Positions 42,004-47,938 of a stretch of 64,000 bases of DNA are shown here, one piece after another. The notes beneath the pieces were generated by a model. It did not search any database, had not been told where the DNA came from, and saw only the letters and a list, made by a program, of their open reading frames with translations. The translations under genes were made by a program, and so were the position numbers. The DNA lies in NCBI GenBank assembly GCA_036362985.1, contig JAYGXS010000003.1, positions 82,911,870 through 82,975,869 on the forward strand. Direction: 5' to 3'. The stretch comes from Ligula intestinalis (Eukaryota > Platyhelminthes > Cestoda > Diphyllobothriidea > Diphyllobothriidae). Position 1 is the first letter of the stretch, and the number at the start of each line of letters is the position of its first letter.

Positions 42004-42070
42004 ATGATGTTTTCCGCCAAGATGCTTCTTCTGTCAGCCTTTCTGGTCCAACTCGCAACCGCCCACGAAG
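42004..42070 (+). CDS. Kunitz gene 1, exon 1: signal peptide
   Basis: Starts at the first of two adjacent ATG codons and encodes a classic signal peptide: Lys at residue 6, hydrophobic core LLLSAFLVQL, and an ATA cleavage site before HE. The donor is G|GTAAGA, leaving phase 1. The gene 2 counterpart (55629-55695) has the same length and a near identical core, but only one ATG at the start (MTF), so either ATG may be used here. Confidence 0.9.
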
Positions 42071-45000: not shown

Positions 45001-47938
45001 TCAAGCGACATCCTAATGCATTGTGCCACGTGTTGCCTCGTACAATGCTGCCGATATTTTAAGAATGGTCACAAATATGGGACTATTTTGTGACGGGTAA
45101 AATAAAAACAAACCTCAAACTTACTGCTACCGGAAGCAGCTTCTTCATTATTTGACGTCAATAAATTTAGTTTTGAGTTTTTTTCTCCAAGACAGTTTAC
45201 AAAGATGCAACAATGAGCAAGTTTTACATTGATCAGTAAATAAATATTAACTCACTTGTACGTTTTTTCAATGTTCTAATATATTACAGTTTTATGAACG
45301 AACCAAACTTAATATTACAGATAATAAGGTTTTAAAATATGCTCCTCCGTAAAGTTTTGTTTTTTAACACTTAATGATACCCTACAGGTTTGTATGAATA
45401 TCAGTGGCTGCTTTAAGTAAACGACCTCGGAACTTGTATTTGTCTCGGGCATCTGCGAGGGCATCCATCCTCTACTTCCTTAATGTCCTATAAACGGGCC
45501 ATGAAATCAACTATAGTTCATTCATTGGTCCCGCACAAAAATATTTCGGACGTCCAGTACTGAGACCAGTGCTGAAACGATTGTCAAAAAGAGTATCGTG
45601 CTTGATAAAATCGGCTCTGCAGGTGCCAAAACGAGTTAAGTAGTGAAGACTATAAGTGCATCACATCCGTATTACTTAACATAATATGGTCGGAAAGTAT
45701 AAAAATGAAAAGTTTCGTTCGGTCAAATTATCAAGCAACCTAAAATTTTGCTAAAATGTGGCATGTTTCCGTTAAATGGATTGTAATAAAAATTTAATTT
45801 TCCTAACTTAAAGACTTTATTCGAATGAGATCCGTTCAGTCGACTAAAATAACGCCACAAACTGTATGCTAAACTACCAAGCCCAAATTCGATATGGCTT
45901 TGCATGAATTACCCCAACAACTCAACGCATATTTTAAGACAATCTACTTCTCTCTCTATTTGCCTGATTTAATAATTCTTTAGCTTTTCTCAGTTAGACG
46001 TGGAATATGTTTACTTTTGACACCCCCAAATTAATTTAAATAGAAACTGCAGAACTATTGTTGCGGTTTTCTAATCCTTTTCGGCTGAGGGAAGTTGAAG
46101 TTACAATTCGATCTATAAGCAACCTTACCACCATCTACCTTGGTGCAAACGCGTCGAAGACTAAATAATCCATGTTGCCTCTGGACTTTTATTGTTAACG
46201 TAATAACGAAGCATCGTTCTATTATTCAATCTGATCATTCATTATAGATACCAAGGATCTGAAAAACGCTCCTCTGCAACGTTTCTTCGGCAGGTATTTG
46301 GGTATGTTTTGCAGACAATTATCCCGTTAATTATACTTAAACACCAGATATACAAACAACTTTAGGCTTCGCTGTATAAGAACATTTCTTGTAATTACGA
46401 CCAATATATTAGTCTGTGAAAATCAATGTTTTAACCTTTGGAGAAAATCAATCGGCCAATAAATATTGCTAAAAGCCGACTTAAAATCGATGGCTACCAT
46501 TAATAGTTTAGTAAAACAAGTTTGAATTAACTGCTAGTTAAAGAAAATTTTACCCTTGCAGAACTTTCTCCTATCGAAGAAACAAAGAGAACTTATGCCG
46601 GTAAGTATTCTCATACTCTTTTCTGTGAGTGCATAGACAACCTGATACGAAACTTGTTTTGTTCATTGAAGCAGTATCAGGATACTTAGTTTGTTTGTGC
46701 ACAAATAAAAGGTTCGTGGCATGTCTGCATAGTAAGCAAATGGCAACAGTAGTTAATGTTGTTCACCTAATGTACCCCCTGTCCCAGAATTTTGTTCTGC
46801 GGAAACGGTGGTTAAAGGGATCTTGGGGATGGAAAATGAGGAAACGCAGTTGAATATAATTTAACAGCTGATGTATGTACTTTCATTTTATTGAATTTAT
46901 GAATGTTGTTGATTGATACCTGTAGATTTTCGTAGTCTTTACTATTATTTAACGCATTGCGGAAAAAGCTGATTGCAAAAATGCAGGTTCATTGAGCTTT
47001 CTAAACATAGAAATGGTGGTTAGGCAATCGTCTACATCAACTTAATTGAGGTTTAACTCACAATTTTGGAGTACGCGGCAAAAAGCTTCGTTTAGCCTTC
47101 AAGTTACATGCTGAACAACTTATGCCGAGTGGATATGGGAAACGAATTGAACTTTATTTTTTAGACGTGCGCAGATTATAGCATGTCTGCGCATGCCTCA
47201 GACTTGCTAACAATTACTTATGACTAAGGATTCCCGACGGAATTCGAAACGTCAGGAGAAAAAAACTCTTTTTCCAGTGATCGCTAATTCGTCTTCTAGA
47301 TTTTTTTTAATTTACCGTTAACTCTACAAATCGTTTTCAAGGCCCAGCTTATTTTCCTACTCCCAAACCGCCTCTTACCACCGTTTCCGTAGGACAAGTT
47401 GCTGGGATGAGGGGTATGTGAGGTGCAGTACTTAAACTACCCTTGCCAAAATATGATGCGAATACACAAATGTACCCATTTATAGGAACAGGAGTACATA
47501 TTATAATTTGAGATAAATTAAACAGCCGTAAATGTTCCCCATACTCGGCTCAGCACATTTTTTGTTACTGTATTTACAAAATATGGCATCAAGGTGTATT
47601 GTGTACTGGAAGTGGTTTTTGAATCCTCTCCAACGCCAACCTTACTGCTCAGAATTAGCGGTAGACCTTTTATTGACGGTGTTTACTTTGTTAGTCTACT
47701 CCCAGTGTAATTCTTTTCATTAAATAAAACATGACGTTTATATATCCTATGTTTAAATGCTGTAGGAGATAACGAGATCTGCAACCTGCCCGTGGATTTT
47801 GGATGGTGCAGAGCATTCGTACCCCGGTTCTACTTTGACGCCAGAGATGGAACCTGCAAATCCTTCATGTACGGTGGATGCCGCGGAAATGAAAATAATT
47901 TCGAAACCGAAGGAGAATGTCTGGAGACATGCGCTTAG
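42004..47938 (+). CDS. Kunitz gene 1: secreted micro-exon Kunitz inhibitor, seven predicted exons
   Basis: Predicted secreted serine-protease inhibitor of about 146 residues if all accepted exons are joined: signal peptide (42004-42070), exons of 42, 42, 24, 54 and 39 nt (43639, 43832, 44909, 46248, 46562) and a Kunitz domain exon (47766-47938). Each junction is phase 1 and every internal exon is a multiple of three, the hallmark of flatworm micro-exon genes, so any internal exon can be skipped without a frameshift. The spacer between signal and domain is charged and lacks cysteine. The gene is one unit of a tandem duplication with gene 2. A possible AATAAA lies at 48324-48329. The signal and Kunitz exons are near certain; inclusion of each small exon rests on splice signals and paralog conservation. 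Confidence 0.8.
43442..43495 (+). pseudogene. Dead alpha-type micro-exon in gene 1 intron
   Basis: Encodes (D)AKDLKYAPLQRFVDKY in phase 1, like the live exon at 46248-46301. However, the acceptor AG is CG (43440-43441), and the expected donor after base 43495 reads CGGTGT. The counterpart in gene 2 (60717-60770) is damaged the same way at the donor and independently at the acceptor. Confidence 0.6.
43639..43680 (+). CDS. Kunitz gene 1, 42-nt micro-exon (gamma type) with GC donor
   Basis: Acceptor TATTTTCAG, then 42 nt encoding (G)LIKPNHLSLEQHV in phase 1, then donor G|GCAAGT. GC-AG introns are a known minor class and the rest of this donor fits the consensus. The paralog at 61235-61276 encodes (G)LLTPNHIPLERHV but has lost its donor (ATACTT). 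The protein pattern L.LE.H. shows it is related to the beta exon 150 nt downstream. Confidence 0.6.
43832..43873 (+). CDS. Kunitz gene 1, 42-nt micro-exon (beta type)
   Basis: Acceptor TTTCATTTAAG, 42 nt encoding (D)VKDLKYLPLEHHF, donor G|GTGCGT. It is phase 1 at both ends. The minus-strand paralog at 14729-14770 keeps both sites; the gene 2 copy at 61409-61450 keeps the donor but has GG for AG at the acceptor. Confidence 0.7.
44711..44847. mobile_element. 137-bp foldback MITE in gene 1 intron
   Basis: The ends CAGAAGATGAATTAGTGA and TCACTAATTAATCTTCTG are inverted repeats, continuing inward through ACGTTTGTT, ATCGATAA and TTTTCGTCAG with few mismatches over about 50 bp per arm. The short centre has no coding potential. 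The superfamily is not identified and no clear target duplication was seen. Confidence 0.75.
44909..44932 (+). CDS. Kunitz gene 1, 24-nt micro-exon (epsilon type)
   Basis: Acceptor TTGTTTTTAG with a strong pyrimidine tract, 24 nt encoding (A)RILSTKR, and the consensus donor A|GTAAGT. It is phase 1 at both ends. The minus-strand paralog at 13870-13893 has the same length and ends STKR. In gene 2 the counterpart (62289-62308) is only 20 nt between its splice sites and would shift the frame. Eight residues per exon is typical of micro-exon genes. Confidence 0.7.
45321..45360 (+). pseudogene. Decayed alpha-type exon with a stop codon
   Basis: After an intact acceptor (AATATTACAG), the sequence NKVLKYAPP matches the alpha exons but then reaches TAA. 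No donor is visible at the usual place. The counterpart in gene 2 is 62729-62774. Confidence 0.55.
46248..46301 (+). CDS. Kunitz gene 1, 54-nt micro-exon (alpha type)
   Basis: Acceptor CATTATAG, 54 nt encoding (D)TKDLKNAPLQRFFGRYL, donor G|GTATGT. It is phase 1 at both ends. An alternative donor eight bases earlier (AG|GTATTT, 46-nt exon) would leave phase 2 and break the frame into the next exon, so I prefer the longer form. The KDLK.AP.QRF motif is shared by every alpha copy in the locus. Confidence 0.7.
46562..46600 (+). CDS. Kunitz gene 1, 39-nt micro-exon (delta type)
   Basis: Acceptor ACCCTTGCAG, 39 nt encoding (E)LSPIEETKRTYA, donor G|GTAAGT. Length and phase match the gene 2 exon at 63005-63043. 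The residues kept between the two (LS, KR, Y, G across the junction) show that phase 1 is the coding frame. Confidence 0.75.
47222..47290 (+). ncRNA. Hammerhead-like motif in gene 1 intron, followed by the family tail
   Basis: Helix II GGATTCC-CGAC-GGAATTC and an exact GAAACGTC (47246-47253), then CAGG and TTTTTCCAGTGATCGC and TCGTCTTCTAG. Box 1 is degenerate (TATGACT), so self-cleavage within the intron is unlikely. It shows that the repeat has inserted inside the gene. Confidence 0.5.
47766..47938 (+). CDS. Kunitz gene 1, terminal exon: Kunitz/BPTI inhibitor domain
   Basis: The domain has six Cys spaced 8-15-7-12-3, exactly canonical, forming the usual three disulfides. The reactive loop reads GWCRAFVPR, so P1 is Arg and P1' Ala, predicting trypsin-like targets. 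RFYFD, the YGGCRGNENNF segment and the closing ECLETC follow. The exon starts in phase 1 after ATGCTGTAG and stops at TAG 47936-47938, with the last Cys followed by one Ala. The whole domain is in one exon, as in many invertebrate Kunitz genes. It is about 80 percent identical to the copy at 17064-17236. Confidence 0.95.

What the first reader, a model, noticed from the sequence alone, without database searches (positions are those of the whole stretch)
42004..47938. A Kunitz inhibitor built like a micro-exon gene
A signal-peptide exon and a Kunitz exon are separated by 5.7 kb that contains at least five tiny exons (24, 39, 42, 42, 54 nt). All are phase 1 to phase 1 and a multiple of three, so any subset can be spliced without frame loss. 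Micro-exon genes are known in flukes and tapeworms as makers of variable secreted peptides, and Kunitz proteins are known secreted inhibitors. The combination, a fixed inhibitor domain with a combinatorial N-terminal tail, is not something I recall being described.
Basis: partly seen in the sequence, partly recalled or inferred. Interest (0 to 1): 0.88.

Follow-up and report, generated by a model that had tools for sequence, protein, structure and literature searches.

The report
Kunitz inhibitor with micro-exon tail
In what looks like a tapeworm genome, a family of genes for a secreted protease inhibitor carries, between its signal peptide and its inhibitor domain, a string of tiny coding exons that evolve like real protein and could let one gene make many tail variants, though it is not yet shown that the variants are made.

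Summary
The exons are there, and taken together they evolve as coding sequence. The seven exons of the model (42004-47938) have splice-site dinucleotides; the five small ones are multiples of three, phase 1 to phase 1. One boundary is uncertain: exon 5 is 42 nt (GC donor, as in relatives) or 54 nt (GT donor), both in frame. By itself the pattern is weak: 113 loose intervals in the intron, 115 antisense. Relatives settle it. The window lies in a Kunitz gene cluster of a 644-Mb genome, inferred diphyllobothriid tapeworm. Paralogues share the small exons; pooled pN/pS is 0.19 and 0.34 against about 0.9 for introns. A Dibothriocephalus latus database protein (P0004) joins exons 3-4-5-6 to the Kunitz domain in this order and frame. 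The exons are duplicated, gained and lost between paralogues; gene G has eight intact ones. The models of C and G meet published structural criteria for micro-exon genes. A constant domain with a spliced tail has a precedent (SmVAL6); I found no Kunitz version in my searches. Exons 4 and 6 carry a Lys-Arg, a possible cleavage site. Combinatorial splicing, expression and cleavage are untested. Verdict: real, a new variant of a known kind; the combinatorial part is unproven.

The parts
41957..41962 (+). TATAAA box 47 nt before the start codon of gene C
   Evidence: a TATA-like box at -44 to -48 in 8 of 8 accepted E1 copies of the cluster
42004..42070 (+). E1, signal-peptide exon of gene C (MMFSAKMLLLSAFLVQLATAHE), ends in phase 1
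   Evidence: seven further accepted E1 copies in the cluster
43442..43483 (+). relic of a 42-nt micro-exon (AKDLKYAPLQRFV): neither splice site is left
   Evidence: an intact relative lies in paralogue F at C3:82993914
43639..43680 (+). E2 micro-exon, 42 nt, GC donor (LIKPNHLSLEQHV)
   Evidence: GT donors in paralogues F and G
43832..43873 (+). E3 micro-exon, 42 nt (VKDLKYLPLEHHF)
   Evidence: corresponds to residues 1-13 of D. latus P0004
44909..44932 (+). E4 micro-exon, 24 nt (RILSTKR), carries Lys-Arg
   Evidence: same length with both sites in F, G (two copies) and B
45321..45362 (+). relic of a 42-nt micro-exon with a stop codon and no donor
46248..46301 (+). E5 micro-exon: 54 nt (GT donor) or 42 nt ending at 46289 (GC donor) (TKDLKNAPLQRFF, plus GRYL in the long form)
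   Evidence: 42-nt form in G and in D. latus P0004
46562..46600 (+). E6 micro-exon, 39 nt (LSPIEETKRTYA), carries Lys-Arg
   Evidence: resembles P0004 LSPPEETKRSDG
47766..47938 (+). Kunitz exon with stop codon; P1 residue reads as Arg (BPTI numbering recalled)
55629..55695 (+). gene D, E1 (MTFAAKMLLLSAFLVQLATAEK)
60717..60758 (+). gene D, 42-nt micro-exon relic, acceptor lost
61235..61276 (+). gene D, E2 copy, donor lost
61409..61450 (+). gene D, E3 copy, acceptor lost
62285..62308 (+). gene D, E4 copy, acceptor lost, Lys-Ser in place of Lys-Arg
62729..62770 (+). gene D, E5 copy, 42 nt, both splice sites present
63005..63043 (+). gene D, E6 copy, 39 nt, both splice sites present, Lys-Arg kept (AAA CGT)
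63200..63247 (+). gene D, E7-type micro-exon, 48 nt, phase 1-1
63396..63443 (+). gene D, second E7-type micro-exon, 48 nt, phase 1-1
17064..17236 (-). Kunitz exon of a minus-strand paralogue (B)
14729..14770 (-). 42-nt micro-exon copy with both splice sites (VKDLRYTPLERNF), downstream of the B Kunitz exon
13870..13893 (-). 24-nt E4 copy with both splice sites (QLSSTKR)

Best explanation
A secreted Kunitz-type serine protease inhibitor gene whose usual long phase-1 intron between signal-peptide exon and Kunitz exon has filled, by repeated exon duplication, with short phase 1-1 coding exons (classes of 24, 39, 42 and 48 nt). The transcript starts just upstream of E1 at a TATA box. The product is a signal peptide, then a flexible tail of modules of 8-18 residues, then one Kunitz domain. 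Since every module is frame-neutral, modules can be skipped, duplicated or lost without breaking the frame, and the tail differs between paralogues and probably between transcripts. Shown: anatomy, shared family, protein-level constraint on the pooled modules, exon gain and loss, the same order in another species' database protein. Inferred: the transcription start, that several modules are spliced in, that choice varies, that the tail modulates the inhibitor (targeting, half-life, or removal at the Lys-Arg sites of E4 and E6).
For: Splice sites, phase and open frame. Pooled micro-exons in the annotated frame: pN/pS 0.19 (C/F), 0.34 (C/G), 0.27 (F/G), no stops; the two other frames give 0.67-4.07, with stops in 4 of 6 comparisons. 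Same-size intron samples have median 0.89 (C/F) and 0.91 (C/G); as low as observed in 0.98% and in 0 of 5000; no intron control was run for F/G. Found by exon core only, 24 of 34 42-nt copies have both splice sites and 22 of 34 also no stop; 0 of 34 at each of seven shifted positions. D. latus P0004 = E3-E4-E5(42)-E6-Kunitz; 39 of 45 micro-exon residues equal those of gene G. A narrow 42-nt exon pattern hits 7 places in 644 Mb, all 7 in this cluster, control 0. TATA box in 8 of 8 E1 copies.
Against: No cDNA. P0001 and P0004 are database proteins that may be pure gene predictions. E5 and E6 were not found in F (a 10-N gap lies just before its Kunitz exon); D has lost one splice site each in E2, E3 and E4, and its Kunitz exon was not found (a 2,984-N run lies where it is expected). 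Single modules are noisy: C/F E4 has ratio 0.92, C/G E3 0.66, and E6 against D 0.86 and 0.77. Pairs with D, where three exons are damaged, still pool to 0.30, 0.14 and 0.36, so a low ratio does not prove present use. Between C and F, micro-exons are not significantly more similar than introns in plain identity (0.926 against 0.859, P = 0.096). In B and I, micro-exon copies lie downstream of the Kunitz exon, not between E1 and it.
Confidence: 0.8

Rival explanations
1. All micro-exons with good sites are spliced constitutively: an ordinary many-exon gene with a long pro-region and no combinatorial tail. Tail variety would exist between genes, not between transcripts.
For: P0004 carries E3-E4-E5-E6-Kunitz in a row. 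Coding constraint on the pooled modules does not require skipping. Nothing here shows skipping.
Against: The internal exons of gene C are phase 1-1 and end in G or A, so all skips are safe; exons are lost and gained between paralogues; donors vary in strength and E5 has two in-frame donors. P0001 joins a 42-nt-type module straight to Kunitz, but this may be a prediction. None of it is decisive.
Confidence: 0.4
2. An ordinary two-exon Kunitz gene (signal exon plus Kunitz exon, as in most Fasciola FhKT genes); the small exons are relics or unused cryptic exons in the intron.
For: FhKT genes, fhkt1.3 excepted, have just these two exons with an intron of 500 bp to over 10 kb (PMC7692546, passages). 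Some copies here are clearly dead (43442, 45321). Loose splice-like intervals are as common antisense as sense.
Against: Frame-specific purifying constraint, retained splice sites, and the D. latus protein.
Confidence: 0.07
3. The small exons belong to a separate secreted micro-exon transcript that shares E1 but ends on another 3' exon, not on the Kunitz exon.
For: Gene D has E1 and E5, E6 and two E7-type exons with both sites, but no Kunitz exon was found between it and the E1 of gene F.
Against: P0004 and P0001 join the modules to Kunitz; D's expected Kunitz place is a 2,984-base run of N.
Confidence: 0.05

Closest known systems
Micro-exon genes (MEGs) of Schistosoma, Echinococcus and Hymenolepis (structural definition in PMC7653826, passages)
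   Same: Runs of short exons that are multiples of three, tandem gene families; the gene C model has 7 exons, 5 of them micro-exons in one run; signal-peptide first exon, as in the MEG proteins of PMC10526429 (passages)
   Different: The MEG proteins reviewed in PMC10526429 keep very few motifs beyond the signal peptide; here the last exon is a complete, conserved inhibitor domain. Alternative splicing is not shown here
SmVAL6 of Schistosoma mansoni
   Same: A constant secreted-protein domain plus a part made variable by splicing; the paper says the splicing is confined to exons 3' of the SCP/TAPS domain (PMC7957364, passages)
   Different: Other domain; variable part C-terminal instead of N-terminal; splicing reported there, not shown here
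Fasciola hepatica FhKT Kunitz genes
   Same: Signal-peptide exon and Kunitz exon parted by a long intron (PMC7692546, passages)
   Different: Two exons (fhkt1.3 lacks the first); no micro-exons in the passages seen
Dibothriocephalus latus database proteins P0004 and P0001
   Same: Same modules joined to the same Kunitz type; P0004 is close to gene G
   Different: Start in the middle of a module, no signal peptide; not described in any paper I saw

Membership tests
Micro-exon gene (criteria of PMC7653826, section 25) | Micro-exons under 70 nt and divisible by three | tested here: met
   24, 39, 42, 42 and 54 (or 42) nt
Micro-exon gene (criteria of PMC7653826, section 25) | At least seven exons, at least half of them micro-exons, a run of at least four | tested here: met
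   Gene C model: 7 exons, 5 micro-exons in one run. Gene G model: 10 exons, 8 micro-exons. These are models, not transcripts
Micro-exon gene (criteria of PMC7653826, section 25) | Exon skipping that yields variant proteins | not testable with these tools
   No RNA data held; only the arithmetic of phases could be checked
Micro-exon gene (criteria of PMC7653826, section 25) | N-terminal signal peptide, secreted product (not in the section 25 criteria; from PMC10526429) | tested here: inconclusive
   E1 reads as a signal peptide by eye and its hydrophobic core is kept in the 8 accepted E1 copies; no predictor or proteomics run
Kunitz/BPTI domain (PF00014) | Profile match over the whole domain with six cysteines | tested here: met
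   E 6.9e-21, profile 1-53 of 53; six cysteines in the translation
Kunitz/BPTI domain (PF00014) | Inhibits serine proteases | not testable with these tools
   P1 Arg read from the alignments (numbering recalled); no assay
Two-exon FhKT-type Kunitz gene | Signal exon joined directly to Kunitz exon | tested here: inconclusive
   Both exons are present and in phase, but coding constraint on the pooled exons between them speaks against this as the only form

The most novel reading that the evidence does not exclude
Splicing decides how the inhibitor is processed. E4 and E6 each bring a Lys-Arg site into the tail, so a transcript with them makes a precursor from which the tail, and short peptides such as the KDLKYAPLQRFV module, are cut off, while a transcript without them keeps the tail attached to the Kunitz domain. 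One gene would thus make free and tailed inhibitor plus small secreted peptides. Support so far: Lys-Arg in 8 of 8 E4 copies with both splice sites and 0 of 3 without (Fisher 0.006; copies are not independent, one of the 8 has a stop, and the search profile itself contains these codons); three different Arg codons in E4 and both codons changed synonymously in E6 of D. Weaker for E6: 4 of 4 intact copies but also 3 of 4 broken ones.
Probability: 0.18. Interest if true: 0.85.

Novelty: new variant of a known kind. Interest (0 to 1): 0.62.

Why it matters
Schistosome micro-exon gene proteins share few motifs beyond the signal peptide (PMC10526429, passages), which makes their function hard to approach. 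Here the same architecture is attached to a domain whose activity can be measured, so one can ask directly what a spliced tail does to a secreted protein: change its target, its half-life, its recognition by antibodies, or its processing. The cluster also shows exon birth and death in progress: the same module intact in one paralogue, with a lost acceptor or donor in the next. Gene finders may miss or cut such tails (P0001 and P0004 start in the middle of a module), so Kunitz families of related tapeworms may be misannotated; this last point is inference.

Tried and rejected
Signal-peptide search: residues 14-53 of the contiguous D reading frame (window:55587-55910) gave no candidate. Raw chance argument for the exons: rejected as uninformative, 113 sense against 115 antisense intervals. 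A 46-nt form of exon 5 at CAG|gtattt breaks the frame and was set aside; I at first took that donor for a 48-nt form, and the row 'E5-48' scores a wrong place and is not used. Reading gene D as dead: rejected, because E5, E6 and two E7-type exons keep both sites. Short upstream signal exons in the 30 Kunitz loci (1.5 kb flanks; these include loci of this cluster): the crude scan gave scattered hits and no clear pattern, not used. AlphaFold on P0004 with a 6-row alignment: mean pLDDT 56.7; residues 1-4, 12-19 and 21-52 under 50, strands and helix only in the Kunitz part; consistent with a flexible tail but too shallow to prove it, so no fold search was made. Of 25 E1 hits, 8 were accepted (ATG, open frame, GT donor) and 17 dropped. 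The 42-nt set of 34 merges the T and E2 lists. E4 and E6 counts are (11 and 8 hits); an earlier profile gave 8 and 10, the two extra E6 hits having neither site nor Lys-Arg. Of 34 E7 hits only four (two in D, 82814681, 82842589) have both sites; the rest were not used except as a remark, and many are probably spurious. The 34-base pattern is narrow: it finds 7 of the 34 copies known in the cluster, so it says little about diverged copies elsewhere. Literature: searches; passages seen. Of the 10 papers with both Kunitz and micro-exon I opened 6 for passages; none of the passages describes a Kunitz micro-exon gene; the other 4 were seen as listings only. The Echinococcus Kunitz paper PMC2740865 does not mention exons or introns. 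The library holds open-licence papers only; DeMarco 2010 is not held.
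Full report
The finding and its coordinates. Seven exons run from 42004 to 47938 on the + strand: E1 (67 nt, signal peptide), E2 (42), E3 (42), E4 (24), E5 (54), E6 (39) and the Kunitz exon (173 with stop). The six acceptors are AG; the donors are GT except E2, which has GC in a good context (gcaagt). The small exons are phase 1-1. Because each exon before a junction ends in G or A, a junction codon cannot be a stop, so all order-preserving subsets are open: 32 with one form of E5, 48 if both E5 donors count (arithmetic). Exon 5 needs a correction: its relatives in G and D, and the related exon in F, stop at 42 nt, here position 46289, where this gene has GC instead of GT; the 54-nt GT donor is as strong by a profile of 36 family donors (5.0 against 4.7).

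Is it more than chance? Not by itself. A loose scan for open AG..GT intervals of 21-60 nt in the 5,695-base intron finds 113 on the sense strand and 115 on the antisense strand; with a pyrimidine tract and a better donor it is 9 against 0, with a mean of 0.88 in 100 mononucleotide shuffles. The case rests on comparison.

Where it is. The window is C3:82911870-82975869 of a 644-Mb, 2377-contig genome with 82 matches to the Kunitz family (only 100 candidates were scored, and a few matches on small contigs look like duplicates). The three proteins found with the Kunitz exon are all from Dibothriocephalus latus, so a diphyllobothriid tapeworm is inferred; the species is not known to me. Of the cluster I hold 82.77-83.02 Mb (and loci). 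It has ten blastn matches to the Kunitz exon, this one included, and eight E1 copies with ATG, open frame and GT donor, each with a TATA-like box 44-48 nt before the ATG (8 of 8). E1 therefore looks like the true first exon.

The micro-exons are a family. E2, E3 and E5 are diverged copies of one 42-nt exon (motif KDLKYxPLxRxF). Searching both strands of the cluster with profiles of the exon core only, splice sites left out, gives 34 such copies: 24 with both splice sites, 8 with one, 2 with none; 22 have both sites and no stop. At seven shifted positions 0 of 34 have both. E4 (24 nt) has 11 hits, 8 with both sites, one of these with a stop; E6 (39 nt) has 8 hits, 4 with both sites. A further 48-nt class, E7, occurs twice in gene D and once each in two minus-strand genes with both sites. 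A narrow 34-base pattern of the 42-nt exon hits 7 places in the whole genome, all 7 in this cluster, against 0 for the reversed control; it would miss diverged copies.

Gene by gene. F (C3:82.9915-82.9967 Mb) has a 42-nt exon, E2, E3 and E4 with both sites; E5 and E6 were not found in their usual place, but a 10-N gap lies just before its Kunitz exon. G (83.0104-83.0203 Mb) has eight micro-exons with both sites and no stop: a second set (83013891, 83015412, 83016573) plus E2-E6. D (window 55629 onward) has lost one splice site each in E2, E3 and E4 but keeps E5, E6 and two E7-type exons; its Kunitz exon was not found, and a 2,984-base run of N lies where one expects it. Gene C itself holds two dead copies (43442, 45321). 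In two minus-strand loci (B in the window, and I) micro-exon copies lie downstream of the Kunitz exon; both Kunitz exons sit about 220 bases from a 100-N scaffold gap, so order there is doubtful.

They are coding. Pooled over the micro-exons, C against F differ at codon positions 2/1/5, C against G at 17/3/18, F against G at 7/3/10. pN/pS is 0.19, 0.34 and 0.27 in the annotated frame; the two other frames give 0.67-4.07, with stops in 4 of those 6 comparisons and none in the annotated frame. Samples of the same sizes from aligned introns have median pN/pS 0.89 (C/F) and 0.91 (C/G); 0.98% and 0 of 5000 samples are as low as observed. Plain identity is less telling: 0.926 against 0.859 in introns for C/F (P 0.096), 0.794 against 0.732 for C/G (P 0.014). 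By Nei-Gojobori the pooled ratios are 0.16, 0.25 and 0.19, close to the Kunitz exon (0.30, 0.16, 0.17); single modules scatter, from 0 to 0.92, and are too short to judge alone. Pairs with the partly damaged gene D pool to 0.30 (C), 0.14 (F) and 0.36 (G), so a low ratio records past constraint and does not by itself prove present use.

Another species. D. latus protein P0004 (105 aa) reads E3 - E4 - E5 in its 42-nt form - E6 - Kunitz, in this order and frame; 39 of 45 residues of the four modules equal those of gene G. P0001 (67 aa) joins a 42-nt-type module directly to the Kunitz domain. Both begin with a methionine in the middle of a module, as a gene finder that misses small exons would make them. 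What evidence stands behind these entries is unknown, so they show conservation of sequence and frame, not a transcript.

How it probably works. The base plan is that of fluke Kunitz genes, a signal-peptide exon and a Kunitz exon parted by one intron (Fasciola FhKT, fhkt1.3 excepted: two exons, intron 500 bp to over 10 kb; PMC7692546, passages). Here the intron has been filled by duplicated frame-neutral exons. The product would be a signal peptide, a tail of short modules, and a Kunitz domain with Arg at P1 in C and F, Met in G (read; numbering recalled). AlphaFold on P0004 gives no structure to the tail, with a shallow alignment. E4 and E6 carry Lys-Arg: 8 of 8 E4 copies with both sites and 0 of 3 without; 4 of 4 E6 copies with both sites and 3 of 4 without (Fisher 0.006 for E4; copies are related, one of the eight has a stop, and the profile contains these codons). 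Three different Arg codons in E4 and a doubly synonymous AAA CGT in E6 of D suggest selection on the amino acids. That this is a convertase site is inference.

What is not shown. No RNA evidence was available. That modules are skipped, that skipping is regulated, that the tail is cleaved, and that any of this acts on a host are open. I put 0.8 on the micro-exons being real coding parts of Kunitz transcripts and about even odds on substantial within-gene variation.

Known or new. By the structural criteria of PMC7653826 (exons under 70 nt divisible by three; at least seven exons, half of them micro-exons, a run of four; passages) the models of C and G are micro-exon genes. A constant secreted domain with a spliced variable part is in print for SmVAL6 (PMC7957364, introduction passage). 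I found no paper that describes a Kunitz gene of this build (searches, an open-licence library, most hits seen as listings only; DeMarco 2010 not held). Hence: new variant of a known kind.

Noticed in passing
window 63200-63247 and 63396-63443: Two copies of a further 48-nt phase 1-1 micro-exon (ending PAQI) in gene D, with relatives in two minus-strand genes and a run of nine degenerate hits beside a Kunitz exon at C3:82779574-82782566.
   Followed up: partly
window 39637-39736: A run of 100 N flanked on both sides by the same reading-frame stretch (GQKLLMCFTDAFANR); looks like an unresolved assembly join with duplicated ends.
   Followed up: no
window 17452-17551 and C3:82878297-82878396: Two 100-N gaps, each about 220 bases upstream of a minus-strand Kunitz exon, with micro-exon copies downstream instead of upstream; order may be misassembled.
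   Followed up: partly
window 48510-48944 (-) and 1422-1757 (+): Reading frames with an FVDDTF / YVDDTF stretch that look like reverse transcriptase fragments (motif recalled); the first gave no Pfam match, the second was not tested.
   Followed up: no
window 44711-44847: An imperfect palindrome of 137 bases (73% against its own reverse complement) in the intron between E3 and E4; a small transposon or a hairpin in the pre-mRNA.
   Followed up: no
window 47186-47297, 58511-58621, 9780-9889: A dispersed repeat (78-82% alike, both orientations), also inside the last intron of gene C.
   Followed up: no
C3:82863830 (+) and 82874729 (-): Nearly identical E4 copies on opposite strands, with E7-profile hits in mirror order around them (82864796 +, 82873763 -), pointing to an inverted duplication; one E4 copy has a stop.
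   Followed up: no
P1 site of the Kunitz exons: window 47766-47938, F, G, P0001: The P1 residue reads Arg in C and F, Met in G and Gly in D. latus P0001, so inhibitor targets may differ between paralogues (numbering recalled).
   Followed up: no
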